Positions 17,351-58,224 of a stretch of 64,000 nt of DNA are shown here, in pieces. The position numbers were made by a program, and so were the translations under genes. The stretch's first letter is position 1, and each line of letters starts with the position of its first letter. The DNA lies in the NCBI RefSeq assembly GCF_003119115.1, contig NZ_CP022363.1, positions 124,001 through 188,000 of the forward strand. Direction: 5' to 3'. A model generated the notes under the pieces. That model saw only the letters and a list, made by a program, of their open reading frames with translations, was not told the DNA's origin and ran no database searches. This stretch comes from Azospirillum sp. TSH58. GTDB lineage: Bacteria > Pseudomonadota > Alphaproteobacteria > Azospirillales > Azospirillaceae.

Positions 17351-17362
17351 CGGGCGGCCTCC

Positions 17363-18838: not shown

Positions 18839-18869
18839 GCCGCCGCCTCCACCGCGCCTGTCACTGTTG

Positions 18870-19955: not shown

Positions 19956-19973
19956 GACTGGACCGCCTTCCGA

Positions 19974-21566: not shown

Positions 21567-21588
21567 GGGTCGTCTCCCCGCCGGCCGG

Positions 21589-23562: not shown

Positions 23563-23653
23563 GATCCAAACCCCTTGCCCCGTGAGTCCGTGCTTCTCTG
23601 TCGGGGGCTCTTGTTGATTGGCGTGTGTTGATTGCCGGCGGTTGTGCCCGCCC

Positions 23654-24292: not shown

Positions 24293-24319
24293 TGGCGGGC
24301 GCCGGCCGGACCGCGCCGG

Positions 24320-40287: not shown

Positions 40288-40328
40288 GGAACGGAATAAC
40301 CACACGCGGGTGTGTTCAAAGCCGTTCC
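40288..40328. promoter_or_regulatory. Nested palindrome upstream of DUF3008 and NRPS genes
   Basis: GGAACGG (40288-40294) and CCGTTCC (40322-40328) are perfect inverted arms enclosing an inner palindrome CACAC-GCGG-GTGTG (40301-40314). On the minus strand the same bases give GGAAC-N17-CGTG, three of four -10 bases of the general-stress sigma consensus, pointing at DUF3008. No T-run follows, so a terminator is unlikely. The rest of the 355-base gap before the NRPS holds the promoter and dyad listed next. Confidence 0.4.
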
Positions 40329-40382
40329 ATATCCGTAATGCGGCTTTCCCTTTTGTCAGAATCGCCATGAGTTGTATCATTC

Positions 40383-40410
40383 GTTGACAATCCCTCTTTA
40401 GGACGTATTT
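40383..40410 (+). promoter_or_regulatory. Candidate sigma-70 promoter of the NRPS operon
   Basis: A perfect TTGACA (40383-40388) is followed after 16 bases by TATTTT (40405-40410), in an AT-richer stretch pointing at the NRPS start. The predicted transcript would begin near 40417 and carry a leader of about 90-100 bases that includes the dyad at 40455-40473. Confidence 0.55.
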
Positions 40411-40516: not shown

Positions 40517-43500
40517 ATGCCCGACACCACGCCGCACCTCCCCAACGACCGCCTTCATCTCTCCAACAGTTTCGGACCGGTCAGACTCTGGCCCGATCTT
40601 CGTGTGCATGAGGGATTCGAACGGCTTGTGGACCGGCACCCCACCGCCCCGGCGGTGGTGACGGAGGACGGCATCCTCGACTACGCCGGGCTGGACGGAG
40701 CGGCCAACGCGCTGGCCCACGCTCTGCTGGCGCTCGGGCTGGACAGGGAGGAGCCGGTCGGCGTTCTGGCGGAGCGGTCGGGCCATCTGCCGCAGGCGTT
40801 CCTCGGCATTCTCAAGGCGGGTGGGGTCTATGTGCCGATGGTCGCCGACCTGCCGCCGGAGCGGCTGGGCAACATGGCCCGGCAATCGGGGATGCGGCTG
40901 CTGATCGCTCTGGACGGCCTCGCCCCGCCGGACGCGCTGGCCGATGCCCTGTCCGCCAACGTCCGGGTGGAGCGGCCGGACGCGGTACTGCGCCCCGAGG
41001 CTCTGGATGGCGACAGCCTCGCAAGATCCGCGGAACGCCCGAACCGGCCCGGCCCGGCCGATGGGCTGGCGGTCATCCTCTTCACCTCCGGCTCCACCGG
41101 CCAGCCGAAGGGCGTGCTGATCCAGCACGACGCCTGCGTGAATCTGGCGCTCGGCCACACGGAGGCGCAGGACGTCGGGCCGGGCGACCGGGTGCTGCTG
41201 TCCACCTCCCCCGGCTTCATCCTGGGATTCCGTGAGCTGTGCCTGCCGCTGCTCTCCGGGGCCGCCTATGTCCCGGCCTCGCGCGCGCTGATCGACGATC
41301 CGGCGCGGCTGCTCGACCACATGGCCCGGCTGGGTGTGACCATCGCCCTGTTCACCCCCTCCTACCTGCGGCTTCTGCGCGGAGCGGTGCCGGCGGGCCT
41401 CCGCATGATCCTGACCGCCGGGGAGCGGCCGAACCCCGACGACGCGCGGCATTACGCCCGTCACCTCGACTACTGGAACATGCACGGCGCCACCGAGGTC
41501 TGCGGCACCATCTGCATGCACAAGGTGAATCCCCACGGCGACGGCCCGCTGCCCAGCGGGCGGCCCTTCACCAACAACGCCGTCCATCTGCTGGACCGCC
41601 ACGGCAACGAGGTCCCCGATGGTGAGGTCGGCGAGATCCACGTCGTCGGGCGGGGCGTCTCGCGCGGCTACCTGAACCAGCCGGAGCTGTCGGCGGAGAA
41701 TTTCGTCGGGACGCGCTTCGGGCGCGCCTACCGCACGCACGACCTGGGGCGCTGGAACGAAAACGGCGACCTGGAGACGCTGGGCCGCGCCGACGACATG
41801 GTGAAGGTGTCCGGCCAGTCGGTGTCGCTGGGCGAGATCGAGCGGACGCTGCTGCGCCACCCGCTGGTCAGCCGCGCCGCCGCCCTTCAGCACCAGGGCC
41901 GCCTGACCGCCATCGTCGAGAGCGCCGACCCGGAGGCCGCGCAAGGAGAAGACTGGCGCGCCTATCTCGGCCGCAGCCTGCCCACCTACATGGTGCCGGC
42001 GCGGGTGAAGGCGGTGGCGCGGATGCCGATCAGCTCCGCCGGCAAGACCGACCGCCGCGCCCTGCTGGCGCTCGCCGATGAGGTCCTGGCCGCGGCACGC
42101 GGCTCGGGCGGAACGCCGCCGCAGGGCGATCTGGAGCAGGCCATCGCCGCGGTCTGGGAAGAGGTGCTGGACACCCGCCCGGTGATGCGGGACGACCCGT
42201 TCTTCGCCATCGGCGGCACCAGCCTGCTCGCCATCGCGGTGGGCCAGCGCCTGCACGCGCTCGGCCATCCGGTGGCGGTGCCGGTGATCCTGGCCGCCCA
42301 GACGGTGGAGGCGCTGGCCCGCCGCATCGCGGACGAGAGGGACGAGGACGCCGCTCCGCCAGACCTGACCAATGGCCCCGCCACCGCCGGGCAGGAGGAT
42401 TTCTGGGTCGCCGCCAAGCTCGGCCTCGCCGCCGCCGGGTCGCACGTCGTGCGCGTCCTATCGGTGCGCGGTCCGGTTCCGGGGGTGGAGCGCTGGCGCG
42501 CCGCCTGGGCCGCCCTGCTGGAGCGCCACCCGGCCCTGCGCACCGCCTTCGAGGACGATGCCGGCGCCGACGCCAACGGGCGGGTGCGCTGGCGCACGGT
42601 CCCCGCCGCCGACCTGCCGCCCGCCGCCGGCTTTTCCATCGACCGCTGCCACCTCCCGGAGGAGGCGCGGGAGTTGATCGCCGGCTATGCCGGGACGCCC
42701 TTCGCCCTGACCAAGGCGCCGCTGGCCCGCGCCGGCCTGATGGTCATCGAGTCCGGCAACGAGACGCTGTTCTGGTTCGTGCTGCACCACGCGGTGGTGG
42801 ACGGCCAGTCCGCCCGGACGGTGCAGGAGGATGTCCTGGCCCTGCTGCTGGGCCACGCCTTGCCTCCGGCGCCGCACGGCATGGCTCTGGCCGCGCGGGA
42901 CGAGGCGCGCCACCTCCGTTCCGACCGGGCGGAGCAGGACCGCGCCTTCTGGCGGTCCACGCTGGACGCCCTGCCGCTTGAGGCGTTCGAGGAGCTTCCG
43001 CTCGACCAGCCCCGCCCCACCACACCCGGCGGACGCTCCGCCCCGCCCCTGGCGGAACGGCTGGACGCCGCGACCACCGCGGCCCTCACCACCATCGCGA
43101 AGGCGCAGGGCGTCGGCCTGCACGGCCTGCTGCTGGCGATCCTCGCGGCGGAGACGCGGCGGCGCGGCGGACGGGCCGACCTGATCCTGGGCACCGGCGT
43201 TTCGCTGCGCCCCGCGGGGGCTGACGACGCCGTTGGGCATTTCGTCAATCTCGTGCCGGTCGTCCTGCCCGGCGCCACGGCCCCACTGACCGGGCAGATC
43301 CGCGCCACCCAGGACGCTCTGACCGAGGCGGTCGGGCACGCCGGCCTGCCCGCCAACCTGATCCAGCGGGAGTTCCGTCAACGCCGCCCCGGAGCGCTGC
43401 CGCCCGCCCGTCCCAACCTCTTCTCGGTGGCGCTGACCGCCAACCCGCCGCGGACCAGCGGCGATCCGGCCAGCGGCCTGTCGCTGGCCCCGCGTCGCCT

Positions 43501-46500
43501 GCCCGGCGCCCTCGCCCACCCCGCCGCCGGGCTCGACCTCGCCTTCAGCCACGAGCCGGTGACGGCGGAGGACGGCGAGGGGCTGGAACTCGCCCTGCTG
43601 TGGAATCCGGACGTCTACGCGGAGGCCACCGCGCGCTCCTGGCTGGCCGGCTTCGCCGCCTGGGCGCGCTGGCTGGCCGCCGATCCGGCGCTGCTGGAAT
43701 CGCCGCTGCCCGCCCTGCTGCCGGAAGAGGCGGTCCTTCTGGAACGCTGGGAGCATGGGGAGGAGCGTCCCCGCCCGGCCCGCCGCGCCCATGAGCTGTT
43801 CGAGGAGATCGCCGCCCGCCAGCCGGACCGCCCCGCCGTGGTCACCCGTGCCGGCCTGCGCCGCTACGGCGAGTTGAACCGGGACGCCGACCGCATCGCC
43901 ACCGCCCTGCTCCGCTGCGGCGTGACGCGGGAGGAGGCCGTGGCGGTGCTGACCGGCTGCGCCCCGGACCTGCCCGCGGCGGTGCTCGGCGTGTGGAAGG
44001 CCGGGGCGGCCTACCTGCCGCTGGCCCACGACCTGCCGCCGGAGCGCATGGCCTACATGGTCCGCGACGCGGGGGTCCGGCTGCTGATCGCGCTGGACGG
44101 CCTGCCGGTCCCTCCCGCCCTGGCAGAGGCCGTGCCGACGCTGATCCGCCCGGACATCCTCGAAGGCCCCGCCGAACGGACCGCCGTGGCCGGGGCGCCG
44201 GACGACCTCGCCTACATCATCTACACCTCCGGCACGACCGGGCATCCGAAGGGCGTCGCGGTCCGTCACGACGGCTTCATCAACGCCGCGCTGGCCACCG
44301 GAGAGACGGTCGGCCTGCGGGCCGACGACCGCATGGCGCTGGCCGCGACGCCGGGATTCGACGCCTCGCTGTGGGAACTCGGGCTGGCGCTGCTGCACGG
44401 CATGGCGCTGGTGCCGGTGCCGCCGGACCTGCGCGACGATCCCTGGGCGCTGAAGGACGCCTATGCGGAGCTGGGCGTCACCGTGGCCTTCCACGCCCCC
44501 TCCTATCTGCGGGTCAGCCAGGAGAAGCCGTTCCGCGGCCTGCGCGTCCTGCTGACCGGCGGGGAGGCGCCGAACGCCGACGACGCCCGCCGCCACGCCG
44601 CCGATCTGGCCTTCTGGAACGCCTACGGCCCTACCGAGGCGAGCATCCTCGCGTCCATGGGCCGCATCCTGCCGGACAGCGGACGCGGCGGCCCGGTGCC
44701 CGCCGGGCGCCCGCTGCCCAATGGCCGCGTCACGCTGCGCCGCCCGGACGGCACGCCGGTGCCGCCCGGCCTGCCGGGGGAGCTGTGGCTGGGCGGGGTG
44801 GGGCTCGCCCGCGGCTATCTCAACAACCCGGAATTGACCGCCCGCTCCTTTGTCGAGACGGCGGAGGGCCGCTTCTACCGCACCGGCGACCTCGGCCGCT
44901 GGTCGGCGGAGGGGCAACTGATCCTGTGCGGCCGCATCGACCATCAGGTGAAGCTGCACGGCCAGCGCGTCGAGCTTGCCGAGATCGAGCAGGACCTGCT
45001 GGCCCACCCCGCCGCCGCGCAGGCCGTCGTCCTGGTGGACGCCGCGGCCGAAGGCACCAAGGCCCTGCGCGCCTTCGTCCGCGCCAAGGACGGCGCCACC
45101 CTGCCCGACGAGGAGGCGTGGCGCGCCTTCCTGGCCGACCGCCTGCCCGCCTTCATGGTCCCGGCCAGCGTGACGGCGGTGGACGTCGTCCCCCTGACGC
45201 CGGCGGGCAAGATCGACCGCGACGCCCTGCTCCGCCTCGCCCACTCCCATAGCCACGCCGCCACGGCGGAGCGGCAGGCGCCGCGGGATGGACTCGAAAG
45301 CCGCATCGCCGCCCTGTGGAGCGGTCTGCTGGGCGAGGAGGTCGCGCGCGGCGACAATTTCTTCGCGCTCGGCGGCAACAGCCTGCTGGCGGTGACCATC
45401 GCCCACCGGCTGTCGCAGGAGCTGGGCACGACCGTCCCGGCGCGCGCCCTGTTCGCCGCCCCGACCCTGGCCGGCTTCGCCCGCAAGGTGGCGGAACTGC
45501 GCGACGCGGACGCGCCTCAGGCCGACGCCGGCGATTCCGACCTCGCCACCGAAGGGGAACGGGAGTTCCGGGTGGCCGAAGCGGCGGGGCTGGACACGCG
45601 GCCCTTCATCATCCCGGTGATCCGCGCCGTGGAGGGCGACCTGCCGGACCCGGACCGCTGGTCGGACGCCTGGACGGCGCTCGTCGAGCGGCACGAGGCG
45701 TTGCGCACGTGCTTCGCGGAGGACGCGGAGGGGCGCCTGCGCCGCCGCGTCGCGGCCTCCGTCGATGGTGCGCTGGAGCTGTCCACGCAGACCGGCCGCG
45801 CCGCGGCGCTCGCCCACATCCGCGCCCGCCAGGGAGAGCCCTTCACCGTGTCCGTGGCGCCGCTGTGGCGGGCCGGGCTGGTGACGACGGCGGACGACGG
45901 CGCGCCTCTGTTCTGGATGGCGATTCACCACTCCATCGGCGACGGGCGCTCGGTCGGCATCCTGCTGGAGGAATTGGCCGCCCTTCTGGCCGGTGAGCGC
46001 CTGCCGCCCCTGTCCACCCGCCACGCTTCCCTGGCCGCCCGCGAGCGGCGCTATCTGGACGGCCCGGATTGCGTTGCTGACGAGGCCCATTGGCGGGAAC
46101 AGCTGTCCGCCCTGCCCGCCGAGGCGTTCGACGACTGGCCGCTCGACACGCCGCGCGCCGCCGGAGCCGCCCCCGGCAGCCATCGCTTCGAACTGCGGCT
46201 GGACCCGGCCACCGCCGCCGGGCTGAAGGCCGTCGCCCGCCGGCATGAGGCCAGCCTGCACGCCGTCCTGCTGACCCTGCTGGCGCGCGAGGCCCGGCGG
46301 CGCACCGGGCGCGGGGCCGTCACCATCGGCACCACCGGGGACATCCGGGAAACCGCCGAGGACATGCGCGTCGTCGGCTACGGCGTGACCATGCTGCCGC
46401 TGGCCCTCCGCCCCGCCGCCGACGCCCCCTTCGGGGCGGAGCTGCGCGCCACCCAGGCGGCTCTGGCCGGGGCGCTGCTGCACGCCCGCCTGCCCTTCGC

Positions 46501-49500: not shown

Positions 49501-52500
49501 CGCCGCCTCCACCCGCGAAACGGCGGAGGAGGCGGGCGTCGTCGGTTATTACGTCAACATGCTGCCGGTGCCCTTCCGGGTGGAGCGGAGCGAGCCGCTG
49601 GAACAGGCGGTCAAGACCACGCAAGACCATCTGGCGGAAGCGCTGCGCCATGGCCGCCAGCCCTTCGCCCGCATCCACCAGCAGTTCCGCCGCAGCCAGC
49701 CGCAGGCGCTTCATCCGGCCCGCTACCCGCTGTTCGATCTGGCGGTGACGGAAAATCCAGCGATGCCCGCCCCGCCGTGCGACGGGCTCCGCTTCGCGGC
49801 CATCGACACCCTCGACGACGGCGATATCCGTTACGAGCTGCGCCACAGCGCCCCCGCCCAGGATCTCGTCCTTGTGCATGAGGGGCAGGCGGACGGCGGT
49901 CTGGTCCTCCAGCTCTACGCCAACGCCGCCCTTTACGAGCGGGAAACCGCCCAGGCCTGGACGGCGGCCTTGGCCGGATGGGCGCGGCGGCTCGCCGATC
50001 CGGGACGGGCGCCGGGCGACCCGCTGCCCGCCCTGCTGCCGGACGAGGAAACGCTGCTCGCCGCGTGGGAGCGCGGTCCGGCGATGCCGCACCCGGTTCC
50101 CTGCTTCCACCACCAGTTCGCCGCGCTGGCGCGCTTGCAGCCGGGCCGCCCGGCCCTCGTCACCGACGACGGGGAAACCAGCTACGCCGCGATGAACGCC
50201 CGCGCCAACGCGCTGGCCCACGCGCTGCTCGCGCAGGGCGTGCGGACCGGCGACGCGGTCGGCGTCCTGACCGAACGCTCGCCCGCCCTGCCGGAAGCGG
50301 TGCTGGCGATCTGGAAGGCCGGGGCCGCCTATCTGCCGCTGACCCGCGACCTGCCGGCGGACCGGCTGGCCTTCATCGCTCGCGACGCCGCCATCCGCGT
50401 GATCGTGGCGCTGGACGGCCACGCCCTTCCCGACGCGCTGGCGCAGGCCGGCCACGCCGTCCTCCGCCCGGAATCCCTGACCGACGACTTCCACGCCGCC
50501 CACGCCCAGGAGCCGGAGGCCGGACAACGCAGCGCGCCCGGCGATCCCGCCTACATCATCCACACCTCGGGGTCCACCGGGGTGCCGAAGGGCGTCGTGC
50601 TGCATCATGGCGGATTGCTGAACCTCGGCCTGTCGATGGCGCGGATGATGGGCGTCCAGCCGGACGAGCGGACGCTCCTCAGCTCCTCCCCCTCCTTCGA
50701 CGCCTGGATCTCCGATTGCGTGATGACCTGGGCGACGGGCGGCGCCCTCGTGCCGATCCGCCGCGCCGAGATGGACGACACCGCCGGGCTGCGCGCCAGG
50801 ATGGAGCGGCTGGGCGTCACCTCTGCCACGCTGCCGCCCTCCTACCTGCGGCTGTTCGAGCAGGCCGACCTGCCGACCCTGCGCATCCTGATGACGGTGG
50901 GCGAGCCGCCCAACGCCGCCGACGCCCTGCACTACGCGGCCCGGCTGCGCTACATCAACGGCTACGGCCCGACCGAGAACACCGCCGCGGCCAGCATCGG
51001 CATCCTGTGCCCCGGCTCGCCGTGGATGAGCGCCGGGCGCCCGCTGCCCAACACCGCCATCCACATCCTGGACGAGGACGGCGAGCCGGTTCCCCCCGGC
51101 GCCATCGGCCATGTCTGGCTGAGCGGCATGGGCTTGGCCATCGGCTACCTGAACCGGCCCGACCTGACCGCCGCCGCCTTCGTCGAGACGCCGAAGGGCC
51201 GCCGCTACCGCACCGGCGACCTCGGCCGCTGGCTGCCCAACGGGGAACTGCTGGTCCTCGGACGGTCGGACAGCCAGGTGAAGCTGCGCGGCCAGCGCGT
51301 GGAGCTGGGCGAGATCGAACACCGGCTGGAGGCCCATCCCGGCGTGCAGCAGGCGGTGGCGCTGGTGGACACCGCGCCGGGCGGTGCCCAGACGCTGTGG
51401 GCCTTCGTCAGCCTCGCCCCGGACGCCGCGGAGCCGAGCCAAACCGCCTGGGCCGCCCATGCTGCGGCGGCGCTTCCCGCCTACATGGTGCCGGCGGCGG
51501 TGATCCGGGTGCCGGCGATCCCGGTGACCGTGGCCGGCAAGGTGGACCGCAAGGCCCTGCTCCAGGCGCTGGCCGATCACACCCCGGCCGAAGGCGCCGC
51601 CTCCACCGCCTACACCCCGCCGCGCAACGCGGTGGAGCAGAGGGTGGCAGACCTCTGGGCGGAGCAGCTTCAGCGGCCCGTTCCGGGGCGCGAGGCCGGC
51701 TTCTTCGAGCTGGGCGGCGACAGCCTGCGGGCGATCGCCGTGGTCAACCGCCTGCGCCGCGAATTCGCCTGCAGGATCAACGACCTCTACGAAGCGCCGG
51801 TGCTCGCCGACTTCGCGCTGCGCCTGCGGCCCCAGCCGGACCATCTGCACCGCGTCATCACCGCCGTCCGCACCCATTGGCGGGACTATCAGGCGACCCT
51901 GCCCGCCTTCGACGCCGCCCGCGACCGCGCGCTGGCCGAGCAGCAGCAAGCCTACGAGGCGCGCAACGCGGCCTACGCCGCCTTCGACGGGACGCAGCGG
52001 CGCGATTATGGCGAGGCGCTGCTGACAGGAGCCACCGGCTATCTCGGCGCCTATCTGCTGCGGGAGCTTCTGTCCGATCCGACACGGCGGGTGACCGCCC
52101 TGGTCCGCGGGGGCGACGACGATGCCGCCCGCGCCCGGCTCGGCCGCGTGCTGGCCGGCTATTTCGGAGCGGACGACGGCGCCGCGCTGATTGCCGATCC
52201 ACGCCTGACCGTCCGGGCCGGCGACCTGCGCCGCGACGGGCTGGGCCTCGCGCCCACGGCGCACGGCGCGCTGGCGGAGGGGCTGCGGGCGGTCTTCCAC
52301 TGCGCCGCCAACGTCAACCATTTCGGCCATTACGCGGAGTTCCACGCCGACAATGTGGAGGCGACCCGCCGGCTTCTCGACCTCGCCGCCGCGCGGCGCG
52401 GCGACCCGGCGGACTTCCACCTGATCTCCACCCTGTCGGTCACCGGCAAGGCGCCGGAAGACGGCTTCAAGCTGGTCACCGAATACGACGCGGTGCCGGA

Positions 52501-53131
52501 AACGCTCGACGAGAACTACTACGTCCGCAGCAAGCAGGAGGCGGAGCGGCTGGTCACGGCGGCGCGCGGCGATCTGCGCAACGCCAGCATCCACCGCGTC
52601 GGCAACGTCGTCTTCGCGGCGGAGGGCGGGCCGTTGCAGCTGAACCTGCGGGACAACGCCTTCTTCCGGCAACTGGCCGCCTTCGTGCGGCTGGGGGTGG
52701 TGCCCGACGATTCGCACGTCTGGCTGTGCCATGTCGATCGCGTGGCCCGCGCCGTGGCGCTGCTGGCCGGTGCCGCCGGCCTCGCCAACGAGACGCACCA
52801 TGTCGAGAATCACCGCCGCGACACTCTGGCCGACTTCGTCACCTCGGCGGCGGGCATGGAGGGTGCGGTGCGGGCGGTCGGCTTCGACACGCTGCTCGAC
52901 CGGCTGGAGCGCGCCATCGCGGAGCCGGACATGGACGGCGCGCTGGCCCAGACGCTGGAGGGCTTCGGCCTCTACAGCGGACGCTCGCCCCAGGCGCGCG
53001 GACGGCGGCAGGAGCTGACCTCCGAACGCACGCAACGGCTGCTCGGCCGCATGGGCTTCGGCTGGCCGCCGGTTCCCCGCGCCGGGCAGGCCGACATGCT
53101 GCGCGCCGCCGCGGACCTCTTCACCCGATGA
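40517..53131 (+). CDS. Four-module non-ribosomal peptide synthetase with terminal reductase
   Basis: A cytoplasmic assembly line of about 4,204 residues. Domain order is A-T, C-A-T, C-A-T, C-A-T, R: four adenylation, four carrier, three condensation domains and a C-terminal thioester reductase; no epimerase, methyltransferase or thioesterase domain is seen. All three C domains keep HHxxxDG (HHAVVDG, HHSIGDG, HHSIGDG), all four carriers keep the Ser that takes phosphopantetheine (GGTS, GGNS, GGHS, GGDS), and all four A domains keep the A10 Lys. The first A domain lacks Asp235. Product: probably an acyl-capped peptide aldehyde or alcohol. Start: ATG 40517, or GTG 40505 after GAAGGA. The stop overlaps the oxygenase start. 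No phosphopantetheinyl transferase or MbtH gene is in the window. Confidence 0.95.
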   Translation: MPDTTPHLPNDRLHLSNSFGPVRLWPDLRVHEGFERLVDRHPTAPAVVTEDGILDYAGLDGAANALAHALLALGLDREEPVGVLAERSGHLPQAFLGILKAGGVYVPMVADLPPERLGNMARQSGMRLLIALDGLAPPDALADALSANVRVERPDAVLRPEALDGDSLARSAERPNRPGPADGLAVILFTSGSTGQPKGVLIQHDACVNLALGHTEAQDVGPGDRVLLSTSPGFILGFRELCLPLLSGAAYVPASRALIDDPARLLDHMARLGVTIALFTPSYLRLLRGAVPAGLRMILTAGERPNPDDARHYARHLDYWNMHGATEVCGTICMHKVNPHGDGPLPSGRPFTNNAVHLLDRHGNEVPDGEVGEIHVVGRGVSRGYLNQPELSAENFVGTRFGRAYRTHDLGRWNENGDLETLGRADDMVKVSGQSVSLGEIERTLLRHPLVSRAAALQHQGRLTAIVESADPEAAQGEDWRAYLGRSLPTYMVPARVKAVARMPISSAGKTDRRALLALADEVLAAARGSGGTPPQGDLEQAIAAVWEEVLDTRPVMRDDPFFAIGGTSLLAIAVGQRLHALGHPVAVPVILAAQTVEALARRIADERDEDAAPPDLTNGPATAGQEDFWVAAKLGLAAAGSHVVRVLSVRGPVPGVERWRAAWAALLERHPALRTAFEDDAGADANGRVRWRTVPAADLPPAAGFSIDRCHLPEEARELIAGYAGTPFALTKAPLARAGLMVIESGNETLFWFVLHHAVVDGQSARTVQEDVLALLLGHALPPAPHGMALAARDEARHLRSDRAEQDRAFWRSTLDALPLEAFEELPLDQPRPTTPGGRSAPPLAERLDAATTAALTTIAKAQGVGLHGLLLAILAAETRRRGGRADLILGTGVSLRPAGADDAVGHFVNLVPVVLPGATAPLTGQIRATQDALTEAVGHAGLPANLIQREFRQRRPGALPPARPNLFSVALTANPPRTSGDPASGLSLAPRRLPGALAHPAAGLDLAFSHEPVTAEDGEGLELALLWNPDVYAEATARSWLAGFAAWARWLAADPALLESPLPALLPEEAVLLERWEHGEERPRPARRAHELFEEIAARQPDRPAVVTRAGLRRYGELNRDADRIATALLRCGVTREEAVAVLTGCAPDLPAAVLGVWKAGAAYLPLAHDLPPERMAYMVRDAGVRLLIALDGLPVPPALAEAVPTLIRPDILEGPAERTAVAGAPDDLAYIIYTSGTTGHPKGVAVRHDGFINAALATGETVGLRADDRMALAATPGFDASLWELGLALLHGMALVPVPPDLRDDPWALKDAYAELGVTVAFHAPSYLRVSQEKPFRGLRVLLTGGEAPNADDARRHAADLAFWNAYGPTEASILASMGRILPDSGRGGPVPAGRPLPNGRVTLRRPDGTPVPPGLPGELWLGGVGLARGYLNNPELTARSFVETAEGRFYRTGDLGRWSAEGQLILCGRIDHQVKLHGQRVELAEIEQDLLAHPAAAQAVVLVDAAAEGTKALRAFVRAKDGATLPDEEAWRAFLADRLPAFMVPASVTAVDVVPLTPAGKIDRDALLRLAHSHSHAATAERQAPRDGLESRIAALWSGLLGEEVARGDNFFALGGNSLLAVTIAHRLSQELGTTVPARALFAAPTLAGFARKVAELRDADAPQADAGDSDLATEGEREFRVAEAAGLDTRPFIIPVIRAVEGDLPDPDRWSDAWTALVERHEALRTCFAEDAEGRLRRRVAASVDGALELSTQTGRAAALAHIRARQGEPFTVSVAPLWRAGLVTTADDGAPLFWMAIHHSIGDGRSVGILLEELAALLAGERLPPLSTRHASLAARERRYLDGPDCVADEAHWREQLSALPAEAFDDWPLDTPRAAGAAPGSHRFELRLDPATAAGLKAVARRHEASLHAVLLTLLAREARRRTGRGAVTIGTTGDIRETAEDMRVVGYGVTMLPLALRPAADAPFGAELRATQAALAGALLHARLPFARICHGFWAEHPQHRDPARYPLFDIAVTENPQGASAAGPLRFARPDHQGLAYERTGHSPGQDMVLIHERLADGGLLLQWHVNAALYAKDTAERWFEALAGWARWLGGDAARAESTPPALLPEEEATLAAWEHGPAVERPALPFHALFERLIDRPGTGQGGRPAVIGADRVLTYRAVEAEANAIAHALRERGAERGTVVGVLTGRSATLPAALLGVWKAGAIHLPLAADLPAERLAFIAGDAGAALLLALDGVTVPEALSALPVLRPEELSADFRTAHAHRPQAHHPEDETGPEDTAYILYTSGSTGRPKGTPVRHGAYVNMVLGAVETFGLTAEDRTLMFASPSFDVSLSDIGVPLAAGAALCAVPYEVLSAPARLIAFLAEQRVTVADLTPTYLRLFDGADLPSLRILVTGGEAPLAADVRTYAGRLRYYNAYGPTENTITSAMGLLGAEDRGFLPVGRPLPNTSVHIRDAAGRPVPPGAVGEIWLGGANLARGYLNRPEQEAAAFVGTGAGRLYRSGDLGRWRADGELEVLGRIDDQVKLNGIRIELGEIEQALGGHPDVAQAVAVVQGKAGTAQSLWAFVRPVPGKPVPAEDSWRGWLADRLPAVMIPAGVIAVETVPVTASGKVDRAALQGLIAGHAPQGARIAPQGRLEETVARVWAERLGRGPVWRDDNFFALGGHSLLAIAVAHALETELGRPVSARDLFTEPTLRGFAARLAAAMPTEPLSGAESDRATEGQREFWVAEQAGLDTRGFIIPLTLAVEGDVPADDRWREAWSALADRHEALRTGFREDEDGTLRRTVHSSTAGLNLATAPDRAAALERIRARQTEPFAMAAPPLWRAGLVRVADGSGDLFWLALHHSIGDGLSLGLLADDLAALLRGMPLPGRAPGFGRSAAREESYLAGEATRTDAEHWQSLLAGIDPAAFEEWPLDKPRPPVRSVDAAQGSHCHRVRLAPDVAEALRALARRNGASLHALMMTLMAREVRRRTGRAAFLMGTAASTRETAEEAGVVGYYVNMLPVPFRVERSEPLEQAVKTTQDHLAEALRHGRQPFARIHQQFRRSQPQALHPARYPLFDLAVTENPAMPAPPCDGLRFAAIDTLDDGDIRYELRHSAPAQDLVLVHEGQADGGLVLQLYANAALYERETAQAWTAALAGWARRLADPGRAPGDPLPALLPDEETLLAAWERGPAMPHPVPCFHHQFAALARLQPGRPALVTDDGETSYAAMNARANALAHALLAQGVRTGDAVGVLTERSPALPEAVLAIWKAGAAYLPLTRDLPADRLAFIARDAAIRVIVALDGHALPDALAQAGHAVLRPESLTDDFHAAHAQEPEAGQRSAPGDPAYIIHTSGSTGVPKGVVLHHGGLLNLGLSMARMMGVQPDERTLLSSSPSFDAWISDCVMTWATGGALVPIRRAEMDDTAGLRARMERLGVTSATLPPSYLRLFEQADLPTLRILMTVGEPPNAADALHYAARLRYINGYGPTENTAAASIGILCPGSPWMSAGRPLPNTAIHILDEDGEPVPPGAIGHVWLSGMGLAIGYLNRPDLTAAAFVETPKGRRYRTGDLGRWLPNGELLVLGRSDSQVKLRGQRVELGEIEHRLEAHPGVQQAVALVDTAPGGAQTLWAFVSLAPDAAEPSQTAWAAHAAAALPAYMVPAAVIRVPAIPVTVAGKVDRKALLQALADHTPAEGAASTAYTPPRNAVEQRVADLWAEQLQRPVPGREAGFFELGGDSLRAIAVVNRLRREFACRINDLYEAPVLADFALRLRPQPDHLHRVITAVRTHWRDYQATLPAFDAARDRALAEQQQAYEARNAAYAAFDGTQRRDYGEALLTGATGYLGAYLLRELLSDPTRRVTALVRGGDDDAARARLGRVLAGYFGADDGAALIADPRLTVRAGDLRRDGLGLAPTAHGALAEGLRAVFHCAANVNHFGHYAEFHADNVEATRRLLDLAAARRGDPADFHLISTLSVTGKAPEDGFKLVTEYDAVPETLDENYYVRSKQEAERLVTAARGDLRNASIHRVGNVVFAAEGGPLQLNLRDNAFFRQLAAFVRLGVVPDDSHVWLCHVDRVARAVALLAGAAGLANETHHVENHRRDTLADFVTSAAGMEGAVRAVGFDTLLDRLERAIAEPDMDGALAQTLEGFGLYSGRSPQARGRRQELTSERTQRLLGRMGFGWPPVPRAGQADMLRAAADLFTR
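40580..42345 (+). other. NRPS module 1: A1-T1 loading module
   Basis: A loading module without a condensation domain. Core A motifs are present (LFTSGSTGQPKG, GEIHVVGRGVSRGYLN, RTHDLGRW, and SSAGKTD with the Lys). The pocket residues, aligned by eye to GrsA, read Ile-Leu-Arg-Leu-Leu-Ala-Met-Gly-Thr-Lys. Position 235 is Ile rather than Asp and the A5 motif is MHGATE rather than YGPTE. A substrate without an alpha-amino group is therefore expected. The T1 serine codon is near 42221. Confidence 0.8.
42380..45510 (+). other. NRPS module 2: C2-A2-T2
   Basis: C2 has HHAVVDG near 42784 and an unusual opening motif (ATAGQEDFWVA). A2 keeps Asp235 (FDASLWEL). The eye-aligned pocket is Asp-Ala-Trp-Phe-Leu-Gly-Ala-Ile-Leu-Lys, whose first six residues equal a known leucine code, so a hydrophobic residue, perhaps Leu, is likely. 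The T2 serine codon is at about 45380 in GGNSLLA. Confidence 0.75.
45535..48680 (+). other. NRPS module 3: C3-A3-T3
   Basis: C3 has HHSIGDG near 45928 and opens ATEGEREFRVA. A3 keeps Asp235 (FDVSLSDI). The pocket by eye is Asp-Val-Ser-Asp-Val-Gly-Ala-Ile-Thr-Lys. The acidic residue at position 278 suits a basic side chain, and the code resembles arginine codes from pseudomonad synthetases. The T3 serine codon is near 48544 in GGHSLLA. Confidence 0.75.
48700..51830 (+). other. NRPS module 4: C4-A4-T4
   Basis: C4 has HHSIGDG near 49082 and opens ATEGQREFWVA, very close to C3. A4 keeps Asp235 (FDAWISDC). The pocket by eye is Asp-Ala-Ser-Thr-Met-Val-Gly-Ala-Ala-Lys, which I cannot match to a known substrate. 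The carrier GGDSLRA (near 51719) differs from the LLA form of the other three, as is usual for a carrier next to a terminal domain. Confidence 0.75.
51990..53110 (+). other. NRPS terminal thioester reductase domain
   Basis: An NAD(P)H-dependent release domain of the Lys2/SDR type. The cofactor motif is LLTGATGYLGAYLLREL; the catalytic Tyr-x3-Lys is in ENYYVRSKQEAERL; a Thr in ISTLSVTG and the HRVGNVV strand fit the extended-SDR reductases that free the chain as an aldehyde or, after a second hydride, an alcohol. Confidence 0.88.
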
Positions 53132-54159
53132 ACGCCTCCGGAGCCACCATGCTGACCCACGTCCACGACATCGGTTTCCGCACCGGGGAGTTCACCGTGG
53201 AACCGTTGGCCGACGCCGAGACGGCGCGCGTGCTGGCCGTCCTGGCCGCCCGCCACGGGGCGGAGAGCGACGCCGCCGCCCTCGTCCCGGACGGGCGGGA
53301 GGCCGAGTTGCGCGGCGAACTGGCGGAGGCGGCACCCGGCCTGTCCGCCCTGGCCACGGCGATCCGCGACCGGCTGGAGATCAGCCACAGCGGCGTGCTG
53401 ATCCGCCGCGCCCATCTCGGCCGCCACGACCTCGACACCCGGCGCCGCCTGCTCTACGCGCTGGCGGTGTGCATCGGCGCGCCGACCGCGACCGACCGGA
53501 TCGACCGCAAGGTGGTGTGGGACATCAAGCTCCGGCCCGAGTTGGTCCGCAACGGCGGCGCCTCCACCTTCTCCGAGCACGCCGACGAGGCCGACTTCCA
53601 CACCGACACCCAGTATTTCCCGAATCCCGAACGCTACATGCTGCTCTATTTCGCCAAGGCGGCGGCCTGCGGCGGCGGGCGGTCCAGCCTGCGCGACGCC
53701 CGCTGCGTCCGCGAGGCCCTGGCCGGCAGCGACGAGGGACGCTGGGCGCTGGACCTGCTGTCGCGGACGGCCCTGCCCTTCCGCATCCCCGCCACCTTCA
53801 CCCGCACCGGGTCGCGCGACGCGGTCGAGGTGACCTTCGCCACCGTCTTCGGCGACCGCCCGCTCATCCGCTTCCGCACCGACACGCTGCGCCGCGGGCT
53901 GGCCGCCCGACCGGAGCACGACACGCCGGAGGCCCGCCGCGCGCTTGCCATCCTCCAGGCGGAGCTGGACAACCCGGCCCGGCGGCTGGAGACCTTCATG
54001 GAGTCCGACAGCCTGCTGGCGATGAACAATCACGAGGCGCTCCACGGACGCGGCGCCTTCGCCGACCCGGACCGCCACGCGCTGCGCATCCGCATCGATG
54101 ACGGCGCCCCGCAGGATGGCGCACCACAGGATGGCGCACCGCAGGATTCAGCGCGATGA
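53128..54159 (+). CDS. TauD/clavaminate synthase-like Fe(II)/2-oxoglutarate oxygenase
   Basis: A 343-residue non-haem iron oxygenase. The facial triad is probably His-Thr-Asp in ADFHTDTQYFP and the His in NNHEALHG, with the C-terminal Arg of HALRIRID binding 2-oxoglutarate. The context of the triad (YMLLYFAKAAACGGGRSSLR) recalls clavaminate synthase-like amino-acid hydroxylases. It is likely to hydroxylate or desaturate an amino acid, free or carrier-bound, for the NRPS. The start is ATG 53128 (overlapping the NRPS stop by ATGA) or ATG 53149, which has a better GGAG site. The C-terminus carries a 15-base tandem repeat. Confidence 0.85.
   Translation: MNASGATMLTHVHDIGFRTGEFTVEPLADAETARVLAVLAARHGAESDAAALVPDGREAELRGELAEAAPGLSALATAIRDRLEISHSGVLIRRAHLGRHDLDTRRRLLYALAVCIGAPTATDRIDRKVVWDIKLRPELVRNGGASTFSEHADEADFHTDTQYFPNPERYMLLYFAKAAACGGGRSSLRDARCVREALAGSDEGRWALDLLSRTALPFRIPATFTRTGSRDAVEVTFATVFGDRPLIRFRTDTLRRGLAARPEHDTPEARRALAILQAELDNPARRLETFMESDSLLAMNNHEALHGRGAFADPDRHALRIRIDDGAPQDGAPQDGAPQDSAR
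54100..54144 (+). repeat. Three 15-base tandem repeats at the oxygenase C-terminus
   Basis: Three in-frame copies of a 15-base unit (for example GATGGCGCACCACAG) encode Asp-Gly-Ala-Pro-Gln three times, just before the stop and upstream of the exporter start. The copies differ at only a few bases. This is a short expandable tail, probably disordered. Confidence 0.9.
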
Positions 54160-55805
54160 ACCTTCTCCGCCTGCTGGGACGGCTGGGACCGGCGCCGCTG
54201 CGCCGGCTGGTTCTCTACGCGCTGGGGTCGGCCCTCTTCTCCACGCTGGTGCTCGCCCTGGTGAACCGCGGGGCGGAAGAGATCGCCGCGGAGAAGGCCG
54301 ATTTCGTGAATGTGCCGCTGGCCGCCGCCTTCGTCGTCAGCGTCCTCCTCTACATGCTCGTGGAAGGCCGCATGGTCGCCCACCTGTCGGCGGACGCCGA
54401 GGAGGTGGTGGACACGCTGCGCATGCGGCTGCTCGACCAGATCCGCCGCGCCGACCTGTGGAAGCTGGAACGCTTCGGCCAGACCCCGCTGTTCGAAAGC
54501 GTGACGCAGAGCAGCCAGCTCATCTCGCAGAACTCTCAGTTCCTGGCGCTGACGGTGCGCTCGGTCCTGCTGACCGGGACGATCCTGCTCTACATCGCCA
54601 CCATCTCGCCGGTCGCCTTCCTGCTGATCGGCGGGCTGCTGGGCGCCGGGACATGGTTCTACATCCGGCTGGGCCGCGCGCTGGAGGAACGGCAGCGCGC
54701 CATGATGGCCGAGGAGGCCGCCCTGTTCGAAGGCGTGTCGGACCTGTTCGACGGGTTCAAGGAGCAGCGGCTGAACAGCGCCCGCAGCCACGACCTCAAC
54801 GCCGCCTTCGGCGCCGTGTCCGGCCGCACCACCACGGCGCGCGGCGAGGTTCATCTGCACACCTGGCAGCAGTTCGTGTTCGGCGAATGCGCCTTCAACC
54901 TGATGCTGGGCGTGGTCGTCTTCGTGGTGCCGACCTACTCCAGCGCCATCTCGGCGGAGCTGGTGAAGATCACCGCCGCCATCTTCTTCATGTCGGCCCC
55001 GGTCTTCGGGTTGATGCAGTCGCTGGCGGTGATGAGCGCCGCCGAGGCCGCCGCCGGGCGCATGATGGCTCTGGAAGGCCGGCTCGCCGAGCTGGCGGAG
55101 GCCGGGAGCGATGGCCCCGCCCTGCCGGTGCCGATCAACTTCGCCGAAGTGAGGCTGGAGGGGGTGGAGTTCGCCTTCCCCGCCCCGCCGGGCGAGCCGC
55201 CCTTCGCGGTCGGCCCCTTCGACCTGACCATCCGGCGCGGCGAGGTGATCTTCATCACCGGCGGCAACGGGTCGGGCAAATCGACCTTCATCAAGCTGCT
55301 GACCGGCCTCTACCACCCGCTGCGCGGGCGGATCACGGTGGATGGCGTGCCGGTCGGGCCGCAGCGCATCGCCGCCTACCGCGAGCTGATGGCGACCGTC
55401 TTCGCCGACTTCCACCTGTTCGCCCGGCTTTACGGCCAGGACGCCCTCAACCCTGTGGTGGCCGCCGACCTGATGCGCTGGATGGAGATGGAGCGGGTCA
55501 CCGCGCTGGAGGGCGACCGCTTCGGGCGGCGCGACCTGTCCGCCGGGCAGCGCAAGCGGCTGGGCCTCGTCGCGGCGATCCTGGAAAAGGCGCCGATCCT
55601 GATCCTCGACGAATGGGCCGCCGATCAGGACCCGCATTTCCGCTTCAAGTTCTACCGGGAAATCGTGCCGGAGTTGAAACGGCGCGGCCTGACCATCGTG
55701 GCGGTGACCCACGACGACCATTACTTCGACGTCGCCGACCGCCGCCTGCACATGGAGGAAGGCCACCTGACCGAGCTGACCCTCGCGGTGGAGGGCGTGG
55801 CATGA
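54156..55805 (+). CDS. PvdE/SyrD-type ABC exporter, first subunit
   Basis: A 549-residue fused membrane-ATPase half transporter. Six membrane helices span residues about 15-290 (LVLYALGSALFSTLVLALV first). Walker A is TGGNGSGKST, the signature is DLSAGQRKRLGLVAA, and Walker B is ILILDEWAADQDPHFRFKFY, whose DEWAADQDP form is the hallmark of cyclic-peptide and pyoverdine-precursor exporters. It would move the NRPS product, or a precursor, across the inner membrane. It overlaps the oxygenase by four bases and the second exporter by four. Confidence 0.93.
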   Translation: MNLLRLLGRLGPAPLRRLVLYALGSALFSTLVLALVNRGAEEIAAEKADFVNVPLAAAFVVSVLLYMLVEGRMVAHLSADAEEVVDTLRMRLLDQIRRADLWKLERFGQTPLFESVTQSSQLISQNSQFLALTVRSVLLTGTILLYIATISPVAFLLIGGLLGAGTWFYIRLGRALEERQRAMMAEEAALFEGVSDLFDGFKEQRLNSARSHDLNAAFGAVSGRTTTARGEVHLHTWQQFVFGECAFNLMLGVVVFVVPTYSSAISAELVKITAAIFFMSAPVFGLMQSLAVMSAAEAAAGRMMALEGRLAELAEAGSDGPALPVPINFAEVRLEGVEFAFPAPPGEPPFAVGPFDLTIRRGEVIFITGGNGSGKSTFIKLLTGLYHPLRGRITVDGVPVGPQRIAAYRELMATVFADFHLFARLYGQDALNPVVAADLMRWMEMERVTALEGDRFGRRDLSAGQRKRLGLVAAILEKAPILILDEWAADQDPHFRFKFYREIVPELKRRGLTIVAVTHDDHYFDVADRRLHMEEGHLTELTLAVEGVA

Positions 55806-57454
55806 GGCTGGCCGCCATCGTCCTGCGCGAGCTTCCGGAGAATCTGCGCACGCTCGCCCTGATGAACGTCCTGTCGGCGATCGCGACCGCGGCGCTGCTC
55901 TGGCTGGTCGACGCCGCCGCCAAGGACGCCGCCAAGGGCATCATCAGCCCGCGGCTTCTGGTGATGTACGCGGTCACGGTGACCCTGTTCGGGGTGACCC
56001 ACAATTACGCGCTGGTCACCGCGTCCCAGGACGCCGAGCGGCTGATCCACAAGATCCGGCTGCGCCTGTTCGATCTGGTGCGCCGCGCCGACCTCGTGAC
56101 CGTGGACCGCATCGGGCGGGCGTCGCTGCACGGCGTGCTGACCCAGGACACCCAGACGCTGGCCCAGACCCTGCCGCTTCTGGCGATCGGCGGGCAGCAG
56201 GCGGTGATGCTGGTCTTCCTGGCGGTCTATCTGGCCTGGCTGTCGCCGCTGGCCTGCGTGATGGCCTTCGCCTTCGCCGGGATCGCGGTGGCGGTGAAGG
56301 TCGCGCGGGTGCAGCGCCTGCGCCTCAGCATGAGGGAGGCCGCGGCGGCGGAGGCGCGCGTCTTCGACGGGCTGACCGACCTTCTGCGCGGCTTCAAGGA
56401 GGTGCGGATGAACCGCCGCCGCGGCGACGGGCTGATCCGCGACCTCGCCGACGCCTCGTCCCGGGCGCGGGCGGTGAATGTGGACATGAAGGCGCAGTGG
56501 GGCCGCAACTTCGCGCTGGTCGAGGCGATGTTCTACACGCTGATCGGCATGATGGTCTTCGTCGTGCCGCTCTTCACCACCGGCTATCACGAGGTGGTGG
56601 TGGCGGCGACCACGGCGGCGCTGTTCATCGTCGGGCCGGTCAGCACCGTCTCCTTCGTCACCCCGCTGGTCGCCCAGACCGAGATGGCCCTGTCCAACAT
56701 CGAGGCGATGGAGGAACGGCTGCGCGCCGCCGCCGGGGATGCCCCGGACGAGGGCGCCGACCGTCTGCCCGGACCGCCCTCCCGCATCGCGCTGAAGGAC
56801 GCCAGCTTCGCCTATCACGACGGCGAGGGCGCTCCGGTGTTCGCGGTCGGGCCGCTGTCCGCGGAGTTCCGGGCGGGGGAGATCACCTTCGTCACCGGCG
56901 GCAACGGGTCCGGCAAATCGACCATGCTGCGCCTGCTGACCGGCCTGATGCCGCTGGGAGGCGGCCGGCTCCTCGCCGACGGGGAGCCGGTGCCGGCGGA
57001 GCGGATGCAGAGCTACCGCGACACGATCTCGGCCATCTTCTCCGACTATCACCTGTCGCGCCGCCTCTACGGCGTGGCCGACCCCGACCCGGCGCGCGTC
57101 CGCGCCCTGCTGGAGCGGCTGGAGATGCAGGACAAGGTGACGGTCGCGGACGGCGGCTTCAGCACGGTCGCCCTGTCCACCGGCCAGCGCAAGCGCCTCG
57201 CCCTGGTGGTCGCGCAGCTGGAGGACAAGCCGGTCATCGTGCTGGACGAATGGGCCGCCGACCAGGACCCGCATTTCCGCCGCGTCTTCTATGAGGAGCT
57301 GCTGCCCGAGCTGAAGGCCCGGGGCAAGATCGTCATCTGCGTGACCCATGACGAGCGCTGGTTCGGCCTCGCCGACCGTGTCTATCACATGAACGAGGGC
57401 CGCATCGAGGAAGGCCACGATCACCGTCACCTGTTCGCACTGGAGCCGGCATGA
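55802..57454 (+). CDS. PvdE/SyrD-type ABC exporter, second subunit
   Basis: A 550-residue paralogue of the preceding exporter with the same plan: six helices (TLALMNVLSAIATAALLWLV first), Walker A TGGNGSGKST, signature ALSTGQRKRLALVVA and Walker B VIVLDEWAADQDPHFRRVFY. The two share the ATPase core but differ in the membrane part, so a heterodimer is the simplest model; two separate homodimers are possible. ATGA overlap joins it to the gene on each side. Confidence 0.93.
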   Translation: MRLAAIVLRELPENLRTLALMNVLSAIATAALLWLVDAAAKDAAKGIISPRLLVMYAVTVTLFGVTHNYALVTASQDAERLIHKIRLRLFDLVRRADLVTVDRIGRASLHGVLTQDTQTLAQTLPLLAIGGQQAVMLVFLAVYLAWLSPLACVMAFAFAGIAVAVKVARVQRLRLSMREAAAAEARVFDGLTDLLRGFKEVRMNRRRGDGLIRDLADASSRARAVNVDMKAQWGRNFALVEAMFYTLIGMMVFVVPLFTTGYHEVVVAATTAALFIVGPVSTVSFVTPLVAQTEMALSNIEAMEERLRAAAGDAPDEGADRLPGPPSRIALKDASFAYHDGEGAPVFAVGPLSAEFRAGEITFVTGGNGSGKSTMLRLLTGLMPLGGGRLLADGEPVPAERMQSYRDTISAIFSDYHLSRRLYGVADPDPARVRALLERLEMQDKVTVADGGFSTVALSTGQRKRLALVVAQLEDKPVIVLDEWAADQDPHFRRVFYEELLPELKARGKIVICVTHDERWFGLADRVYHMNEGRIEEGHDHRHLFALEPA

Positions 57455-58224
57455 TGGCCCCGCCCCCGTCCTCCTGGCTGCAAGGCTTCCGCCCGGTGGC
57501 GGAGCCGCGCCGCAGGCTGGTCTGCTTCCCCTACGCCGGAGCCGGAGCCGCCGTCTTCCGGGACTGGGCGCCGGAGGTCGGGCCGGACACGGAGTTGCTG
57601 GCCGTGCGCCTGCCGGGTCGGGAAACCCGCATCGGCGAGCCGCCGCTGCATCGGGTGGAGGACGCCCTGCCCGCCATCCTGGCCGCGCTGGCCCCGCTGG
57701 GGGACCGCCCGCTGGTCCTGTTCGGCCATTCGCTGGGCGCGGCCCTGGCCTACGCCGCCGCCCGCGCCCTGACGGCGCAGGGGCGCCCGCCCGCCCTGCT
57801 CGCCGTGTCGGGGCGCCGGGCGCCGCATCGGACGTCGCGGCGGCCATCCACCCGGGGCCTGGACGATGCGGCGTTCCGCGCCCGCCTCGCCGCGCTGGGC
57901 GGCACCCCGCCGGAGGTTCTGGCCTGCGACGACCTGATGGAGCTGATGCTGCCCATGCTGCGGGCCGATTTCGCCATGTCCGAGGCCTTCCATGACCATG
58001 ATCCCCCGCCGCTTGCGGTGCCCATCCTGGCCTTCGCCGGAACGGAGGACACCGAGGCTGCCGTGGACGAGGTCGCCGGGTGGGAACGGCTGGCTGGGGC
58101 GGGCTTCACACTGCGCCCGCTTCCCGGCGGCCATTTTTTCCTGCACGAGCAGCGCGCGCCGATTGTCTCATGCCTGATGGATAAGACGTTCCGAAACGAT
58201 AAAAGTCACCGCACTTCTTTTTAA
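57451..58224 (+). CDS. Type II thioesterase
   Basis: A 257-residue alpha/beta hydrolase of the stand-alone type II thioesterase family, which clears mis-primed or stalled carrier domains of NRPSs. The family opening RLVCFPYAGAGAAVFRDW, the nucleophile Ser in LFGHSLGAALAY, the Asp in AFAGTEDTEA and the His in LPGGHFFLHE are all seen. The first ATG (57451) overlaps the exporter stop by four bases and has GGAG before it; a second ATG follows at once. It ends the operon. Confidence 0.92.
   Translation: MMAPPPSSWLQGFRPVAEPRRRLVCFPYAGAGAAVFRDWAPEVGPDTELLAVRLPGRETRIGEPPLHRVEDALPAILAALAPLGDRPLVLFGHSLGAALAYAAARALTAQGRPPALLAVSGRRAPHRTSRRPSTRGLDDAAFRARLAALGGTPPEVLACDDLMELMLPMLRADFAMSEAFHDHDPPPLAVPILAFAGTEDTEAAVDEVAGWERLAGAGFTLRPLPGGHFFLHEQRAPIVSCLMDKTFRNDKSHRTSF

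What the first reader, a model, noticed from the sequence alone, without database searches (positions are those of the whole stretch)
40517..58224. Uncharacterised five-gene NRPS operon with every junction overlapping by ATGA
NRPS, Fe/2OG oxygenase, two PvdE/SyrD-type exporters and a type II thioesterase overlap in turn at 53128-53131, 54156-54159, 55802-55805 and 57451-57454. Complete translational coupling implies one product pathway made in fixed ratio. Domain order A-T-(C-A-T)x3-R with these partners does not match a pathway I know. No regulator, receptor, PPTase or MbtH gene is attached, so priming must come from elsewhere in the genome.
Basis: partly seen in the sequence, partly recalled or inferred. 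Interest (0 to 1): 0.88.

Follow-up and report, generated by a model that had tools for sequence, protein, structure and literature searches.

The report
Conserved peptide-aldehyde assembly line in Azospirillum
A root-associated bacterium carries a five-gene set that very likely builds, modifies and exports a short peptide with an unusual non-amino-acid front end and a reactive aldehyde (or alcohol) tail; relatives in several genera keep it, and no study of its product turned up.

Summary
In detail: one 4,204-aa NRPS, a TauD-type Fe/2OG oxygenase, two PvdE/SyrD-like ABC exporters and a type II thioesterase, each junction a 4-nt overlap. Such overlaps also occur in 3 of 25 other same-strand neighbour pairs of the window, so they indicate an operon, not a fixed ratio.

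New: the first adenylation domain has Ile instead of Asp235 and GATE instead of GPTE, changes reported for alpha-keto-acid activation. 14 of 14 first A domains read have both; 43 of 43 internal ones have neither. Internal codes look Leu-like, Arg-like and aromatic. Best prediction: an alpha-keto- (or other non-amino-) acyl-Leu-Arg-aromatic chain released as aldehyde or alcohol, perhaps hydroxylated, then exported. It resembles cyanobacterial spumigin/aeruginosin lines in working, not in membership.

The loader occurs in 22 of 82 Azospirillaceae genomes; samples of 385 and 398 wider genomes showed none outside the family at strict thresholds. A catecholate siderophore locus elsewhere weakens a siderophore reading. 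No paper on the product was seen among those listed. New variant of a known kind; product and function unproven.

The parts
40300..40314 (.). Operator-like palindrome CCACAC-N4-GTGTG about 218 nt upstream of the NRPS start
   Evidence: 0.03 expected in the window. Exact 16-nt form in 11 of 14 close-clade orthologues incl. the window, 1 and 2 mismatches in two, not recognisable in one (L058); 3-5 mismatches in the six more distant loci. One match in the whole genome, which about 12 fixed bases would give by chance, so this only shows no further copies. Could belong to the divergent DUF3008 gene.
40371..40390 (+). Conserved promoter box GTTGTATC-N4-GTTGACAA, containing the TTGACA -35-like hexamer at 40384
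   Evidence: 0-1 mismatch in 16 of 16 genus loci other than G029, at nearly constant distance; 3 mismatches in G029; 5-7 in three other-genus loci L069-L071 (G058 and G064 not examined). One perfect match in the genome and one with 2 mismatches. Sigma-70-like scan hit.
40517..53131 (+). NRPS, 4,204 aa, A-T-(C-A-T)x3-R; no TE or KR hit; no fourth Condensation-type (E) stretch
40598..42076 (+). Loading adenylation domain A1: pocket I-L-R-L-L-A-M-G-T-K, A5 motif HGATE; no Asp235 (approximate limits)
42143..42331 (+). Carrier T1 (GGTS; approximate limits)
42374..43681 (+). Condensation C1, HHAVVDG (approximate limits)
43784..45241 (+). A2, code DAWFLGAILK (Leu-like; approximate limits)
   Evidence: 7 of 10 identical to the common Leu code DAWFLGNVVK in PMC12283262
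45293..45484 (+). Carrier T2 (approximate limits)
45554..46861 (+). Condensation C2, HHSIGDG (approximate limits)
46949..48400 (+). A3, code DVSDVGAITK (Arg-like; approximate limits)
   Evidence: fits the Arg pattern of PMC12283262 at 9 of 10 positions; also 6 of 10 identical to DVSAIGCVTK, an aromatic code there
48458..48649 (+). Carrier T3 (approximate limits)
48707..49972 (+). Condensation C3, HHSIGDG
50105..51568 (+). A4, code DASTMVGAAK (aromatic-like; approximate limits)
   Evidence: 5 of 10 identical to the CepA Tyr code DASTVAAVCK
51629..51826 (+). Carrier T4 (approximate limits)
52016..53128 (+). Thioester reductase R, TGATG nucleotide-binding start and YVRSK
   Evidence: Pfam NAD_binding_4; TGATG; YVRSK read in the translation
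53128..54159 (+). TauD-type Fe/2OG oxygenase, 343 aa, H158-x-D160...H306 conserved
54156..55805 (+). ABC exporter half 1 (PvdE/SyrD/YojI-like)
55802..57454 (+). ABC exporter half 2 (cyclic peptide export family)
57451..58224 (+). Type II thioesterase (GHSLG)

Best explanation
The operon makes and exports a short, N-terminally amine-free peptide aldehyde or alcohol. A1-T1 loads a non-amino acid, most likely an alpha-keto acid. Three C-A-T modules add Leu (or a similar aliphatic residue), Arg and an aromatic residue. The R domain releases the chain by NAD(P)H reduction as an aldehyde, possibly further to an alcohol. The TauD-type enzyme oxidises a residue, possibly hydroxylating Arg. The type II thioesterase clears mis-primed carriers. 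The two ABC proteins, probably a heterodimer, move the product to the periplasm. Shown: gene and domain order, catalytic motifs, pocket residues, conservation. Inferred: substrates, product, oxidation site, heterodimer, thioesterase role. A reactive peptide aldehyde suggests a protease inhibitor or the precursor of a cyclic aminal or imine.
For: Domain map; three of three C domains with HHxxxDG. A1 aligned to linear gramicidin synthetase puts Ile on the substrate-binding Asp and Ala on the residue that I count as Pro483 in the 9be3 row. PMC11253843 (passages): the alpha-keto-acid domain StsA has Ile at that Asp and Met at that Pro, and P483M/P483A in LgrA gave a small gain towards an alpha-keto acid. 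Both changes are in 14 of 14 first A domains read: nine (window, G010, G028, G029, G048, G058, G064, G071, G075) and five (Sp7, L033, L034, G037, G007). 43 of 43 internal A domains of the same synthetases have Asp and GPTE. A3 fits the Arg pattern at 9 of 10 positions. TauD-ABC1-ABC2 follow the NRPS in five genomes of three other genera. Whole-gene dN/dS against Sp7 is 0.15-0.33. ACPS-family enzymes are present in trans. R-domain aldehyde release is established (PMC7586950, passages).
Against: No chemistry. Substrate codes are predictions; A4 matches a published Tyr code at only 5 of 10 positions, and A3 shares 6 of 10 with an aromatic code. The best named solved relatives of A1 are amino-acid domains, and entry 6ULX (StsA) is not in the 60 rows shown; the alpha-keto reading rests on two residues. 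Arg at pocket position 239 is unexplained. No KR for an alpha-hydroxy acid. The Arg-hydroxylase link of TauD is weak (E 0.0055-0.012, C-terminal part) and other enzymes score better, such as DfmD at 3e-5. By simple patterns, G048 lacks YxxSK and G029 lacks TGxTGxxG in R. G029 has no TauD, exporter or thioesterase match in the 26 kb fetched.
Confidence: 0.5

Rival explanations
1. It is a siderophore operon: PvdE-type exporters and a TauD-type hydroxylase make and export an iron chelator.
For: PvdE-family exporters and TauD-type enzymes occur in siderophore clusters (general knowledge).
Against: No Orn-, Asp- or aryl-acid-like code recognised among the A domains (by eye). No TonB receptor named among the 21 listed features at the Sp7 locus (incomplete table). 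The genome has an enterobactin-like locus on C5: EntS over its cut-off, CirA/FepA-like receptor and EntF-like NRPS as best matches under their cut-offs, EntC/E/B/A-like frames by eye.
Confidence: 0.12
2. The starter is an alpha-hydroxy acid, aryl acid or short fatty acid rather than an alpha-keto acid; otherwise as in the best explanation.
For: Loss of Asp235 also occurs in alpha-hydroxy- and aryl-acid A domains (PMC11253843, passages).
Against: In the alpha-hydroxy-acid examples there the residue is Ala or Gly (Val in McyG), and the aryl-acid domain DhbE has a different A5 motif; here it is Ile plus GATE.
Confidence: 0.25
3. The aldehyde is only an intermediate: it is captured intramolecularly (for example by the guanidine of Arg) or reduced to the alcohol, so the secreted product is a cyclic aminal or a peptide alcohol.
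For: R-domain aldehydes can be intermediates or be reduced further (PMC7586950, passages). The exporters belong to or near the cyclic-peptide exporter family.
Against: No additional reductase in the operon; no N-terminal amine is expected for head-to-tail imine closure.
Confidence: 0.35
4. A1 is a relic and the line starts elsewhere.
For: A1 lacks Asp235.
Against: The A1 pocket is nearly invariant across genera at 54-76% domain identity; Lys of GKTDR and the carrier motif are kept; dN/dS for the whole NRPS is 0.24.
Confidence: 0.04

Closest known systems
Spumigin / pseudospumigin / aeruginosin synthetases (cyanobacteria)
   Same: Short line started by a non-amino acid, Arg-containing, reductive release to a peptide aldehyde, with an ABC transporter in the pseudospumigin cluster (passages of PMC5640712 and PMC3765200).
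   Different: There Arg is the last residue (argininal), the starter is hydroxyphenyllactate or a short fatty acid, KR or E domains are drawn, and the synthetase is split over several proteins. Here the Arg-like module is third of four, the last is aromatic-like, one protein, no KR, with TauD and two exporters.
Aureusimine AusA and other NRPS-R lines
   Same: A-T...R layout with aldehyde release.
   Different: AusA is dimodular and starts from an amino acid (recalled); P0001 scores 1245.8 against a cut-off of 2500.
Myxochelin MxcG
   Same: NRPS with terminal reductase (recalled); P0001 residues 2776-4189 match its model.
   Different: Score 1286.8 against cut-off 2300.
PvdE / SyrD cyclic peptide exporters (TIGR01194), YojI
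   Same: Both ABC proteins match this family best or second best.
   Different: Two paralogues in tandem, 34-37% alike across relatives; only the second passes the TIGR01194 cut-off.
VioC / OrfP L-arginine beta-hydroxylases
   Same: TauD-like family; weak profile similarity.
   Different: Marginal E-values over the C-terminal part only, and other enzymes score better.

Membership tests
Reductive-release NRPS (terminal R domain) | C-terminal thioester reductase after the last carrier, no TE | tested here: met
   NAD_binding_4 at 3836-4079 of P0001; no Thioesterase hit in P0001
Reductive-release NRPS (terminal R domain) | Nucleotide-binding and YxxxK motifs | tested here: met
   TGATG at 3837; YVRSK read in the translation. 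In relatives each pattern is found in 7 of 8 R domains
Reductive-release NRPS (terminal R domain) | Aldehyde or alcohol product | not testable with these tools
   needs chemistry
Non-amino-acid (alpha-keto-acid) loading A domain | Asp235 replaced by a hydrophobic residue | tested here: met
   Ile in 14 of 14 first A domains read
Non-amino-acid (alpha-keto-acid) loading A domain | GPTE proline replaced | tested here: met
   HGATE in 14 of 14 first A domains read; StsA itself has Met there
Non-amino-acid (alpha-keto-acid) loading A domain | Activity with an alpha-keto acid | not testable with these tools
   needs ATP-PPi exchange
Spumigin/aeruginosin family | C-terminal Arg-derived residue | tested here: not met
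   By predicted codes: Arg-like in module 3, aromatic-like in module 4
Spumigin/aeruginosin family | KR in the loading module or an E domain | tested here: not met
   No KR family among the Pfam hits; three Condensation stretches, all accounted for as C by position
Cyclic peptide exporter TIGR01194 | Score over curated cut-off 286.2 | tested here: inconclusive
   P0004 313.9 passes, P0003 275.3 fails
Myxochelin MxcG / aureusimine AusA equivalogs | Score over curated cut-off | tested here: not met
   1286.8 vs 2300; 1245.8 vs 2500
L-arginine beta-hydroxylase (VioC/OrfP) | Clear sequence relationship | tested here: inconclusive
   E 0.0055-0.012 with profile A2; no structure could be predicted
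NRPS siderophore cluster | A domains for chelating monomers (aryl acid, Orn, Asp) | tested here: not met
   Predicted codes only
NRPS siderophore cluster | Linked TonB receptor | tested here: inconclusive
   None among 21 features listed at the Sp7 locus, an incomplete table; window flanks read by eye

The most novel reading that the evidence does not exclude
A class of natural products confined to one bacterial family: alpha-ketoacyl-Leu-Arg-aromatic peptide aldehydes, electrophilic at both ends, made by a single synthetase whose loader is a re-purposed amino-acid A domain with a natural Asp-to-Ile and GPTE-to-GATE switch and no ketoreductase. Module number varies between genera (a second aromatic module in G064, an extra C-T in G075 and G071) around a fixed loader and exporter pair.
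Probability: 0.3. Interest if true: 0.7.

Novelty: new variant of a known kind. Interest (0 to 1): 0.5.

Why it matters
A. brasilense is a widely used crop inoculant (general knowledge), yet I saw no described product for this conserved operon. If the prediction is right, it adds a dedicated non-amino-acid loader, so far seen in one family only, and a likely protease-inhibiting or signalling peptide aldehyde to the biology of a model root bacterium. Strain Sp7 carries it, so it is directly testable.

Tried and rejected
Siderophore reading: considered, lowered (see rivals). Decay of A1: rejected because the pocket is conserved. Function of TauD from distant relatives (34-42%): in G043 and G016 the homologue sits by MFS-like and LysR-like frames (by eye); in Piscinibacter by an annotated MFS transporter; in Streptantibioticus, whose record has no annotation, no NRPS was recognised by eye. 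This gave no substrate. The best solved-structure match, 7n7v, is named only 'predicted hydroxylase'. Six full A-domain codes were searched in papers; only the common Leu code was found. Samples outside the family: thresholds 1e-130 and 1e-95, and at most 3 candidates per genome were scored, so diverged loaders could be missed; the five non-own matches have Asp and GPTE. A first script for the promoter sites misoriented some loci and was replaced. Condensation subtypes were not typed. Structure prediction was never obtained.
Full report
Observation. The window lies on contig C1 of a 7.24-Mb genome in 7 contigs. The operon DNA is 91-92% identical over its length to six plasmid records of A. brasilense and A. 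argentinense (6 of the 29 plasmid records with any match cover at least 80%). As a control, 3 of 25 other same-strand neighbour pairs in my rough gene list of the window overlap by 4 nt. In relatives the junctions are mostly kept, with exceptions: 1 nt in L033, gaps of about 50 nt before TauD in G058 and G064, 4-nt gaps before ABC1 in G010, G028, G071 and G075. They support one operon; they say nothing about fixed ratios.

Surroundings. glpD, DedA and DUF3008 upstream and DUF697 and prohibitin-type genes downstream are annotated in Sp7; frames at the corresponding places are seen in the window (by eye). Upstream of the NRPS lie a box GTTGTATC-N4-GTTGACAA, with 0-1 mismatch in 16 of 16 genus loci other than G029 (3 mismatches), and a palindrome ACCACAC-N4-GTGTG, exact in 11 of 14 close-clade loci. 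Both are poorly matched in the other-genus loci examined. The genome has one exact copy of each and one 2-mismatch copy of the box; for the palindrome one copy is about what chance gives, so this shows only that there is no visible regulon.

The synthetase. Pfam and motifs give A-T-(C-A-T)x3-R with HHxxxDG in three of three C domains and reductase motifs. Pocket residues were read by aligning each A domain to the second one, with GrsA numbering recalled and the GrsA code seen in PMC11355689 (passages). A1 is I-L-R-L-L-A-M-G-T-K; A2 DAWFLGAILK; A3 DVSDVGAITK; A4 DASTMVGAAK. PMC12283262 (abstract, outline, passages and sections 9 and 15) gives DAWFLGNVVK as the common Leu code (7 of 10 shared) and an Arg pattern that A3 fits at 9 of 10 positions; it also gives DVSAIGCVTK, an aromatic code, which shares 6 of 10 with A3. 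A4 shares 5 of 10 with a Tyr code. In other genera the second and fourth codes vary somewhat (DAWFVGGIAK, DAWFLGCIIK, DAWFNGAIIK; DLSTMVGAAK, DLSSMVGAAK, DAATMVGAAK).

The loader. In the HMMER alignment to linear gramicidin synthetase the amine-binding Asp faces Ile in A1, and the proline that I count as residue 483 in the 9be3 row faces Ala. PMC11253843 (passages) reports Ile at the Asp position and Met at the Pro position in the alpha-keto-acid domain StsA, and a small gain of alpha-keto-acid activity for LgrA P483A and P483M. Its alpha-hydroxy-acid examples have Ala or Gly at the Asp. I read this as evidence for an alpha-keto-acid starter, with other non-amino acids possible. Fourteen of 14 first A domains read have Ile and HGATE (13 of the 22 genomes, plus record L033), and 43 of 43 internal A domains of the same synthetases have Asp and GPTE. 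Arg at position 239 could bind a distal carboxylate; that is speculation.

Distribution. With the loader as query at E<=1e-100, 22 of 82 genomes sampled for the order match, in 4 of 13 genera; all 82 are of one family, and 17 of the 22 are among the 45 genomes of the window's genus. In an even class sample 1 of 385 (the own genome) matches at 1e-130. In a phylum sample 6 of 398 match at 1e-95: the own genome and five that are 38-42% identical and have ordinary Asp/GPTE domains. Only up to 3 candidates per genome were scored in those two samples. TauD at 70% identity or more is in 16 of 45 genus genomes, any match in 19. TauD, ABC1 and ABC2 follow the NRPS in G048, G058, G064, G071 and G075; a thioesterase match lies beside them in G058 and G064 only, within the stretches fetched. 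G029 has the NRPS without partners in 26 kb. G075 and G071 have an extra C-T (Pfam for G075 only); G064 has two aromatic-like modules.

Partners. TauD keeps H-x-D...H in 16 aligned sequences. Its profile matches arginine beta-hydroxylases at E 0.0055-0.012; 7n7v, DfmD and three others score better, and matches above about 0.1 are plainly chance. NCBIfam gives only trimethyllysine dioxygenase far below its cut-off. Walker A, signature and Walker B sequences are readable in both ABC proteins. ACPS-family enzymes are encoded elsewhere. MbtH lies beside a catecholate siderophore locus, which makes a siderophore role for this operon less likely.

Selection. Whole-gene dN/dS between the window and Sp7 is 0.24 (NRPS), 0.22 (TauD), 0.15 (ABC1), 0.16 (ABC2) and 0.33 (thioesterase), as under purifying selection.

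Known work. Searches (25 of 53 papers listed; 25 of 38; 15 of 16; 12 of 12; 20 of 58; 6 of 6) showed no paper on this cluster or product by title or abstract start; most were not opened. PMC8414978 was looked at in passages and does not describe it there. Search 39 looked for codes, 71 for A-domain reviews, 83 for arginine hydroxylases. The closest working analogues are the spumigin and aeruginosin lines (passages), which share a non-amino starter and reductive release but differ in residue order, KR/E domains and gene layout.

Verdict. A real, conserved operon of a known kind with an unusual loader, for which I saw no description. Confidence in the general chemistry (capped peptide, reductive release) is fair; confidence in each residue and in function is lower.

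Noticed in passing
G000:C5:424001-443900 (L094): Enterobactin-like catecholate siderophore locus with EntS exporter, CirA/FepA-like receptor, MbtH and EntF-like NRPS.
   Followed up: partly
G029 (L072, L073): NRPS with the same loader and nearly the same codes but no TauD, exporter or thioesterase match in the 26 kb fetched.
   Followed up: partly
G010 (L035, L036): The NRPS reads as two overlapping frames (2558 and 2155 aa): a frameshift or assembly error.
   Followed up: no
L091 (G075) and L078/L079 (G071): Extra C-T without an A domain between the Leu-like and Arg-like modules (Pfam for G075); what it loads is unclear.
   Followed up: partly
window 7826-8634: Two minus-strand frames that look like a split IS5-type transposase (recalled resemblance, no search).
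   Followed up: no
window 14491-24721: Minus-strand run of frames with receiver- and chemotaxis-like sequences (by eye), with two 4-nt overlaps.
   Followed up: no
L026 (NZ_QOKW01000010.1): Record titled 'Roseomonas genomospecies 6' ATCC 49961 carries the operon; its contig length equals that of G037:C6, filed in the window's genus, so the name is probably outdated.
   Followed up: no
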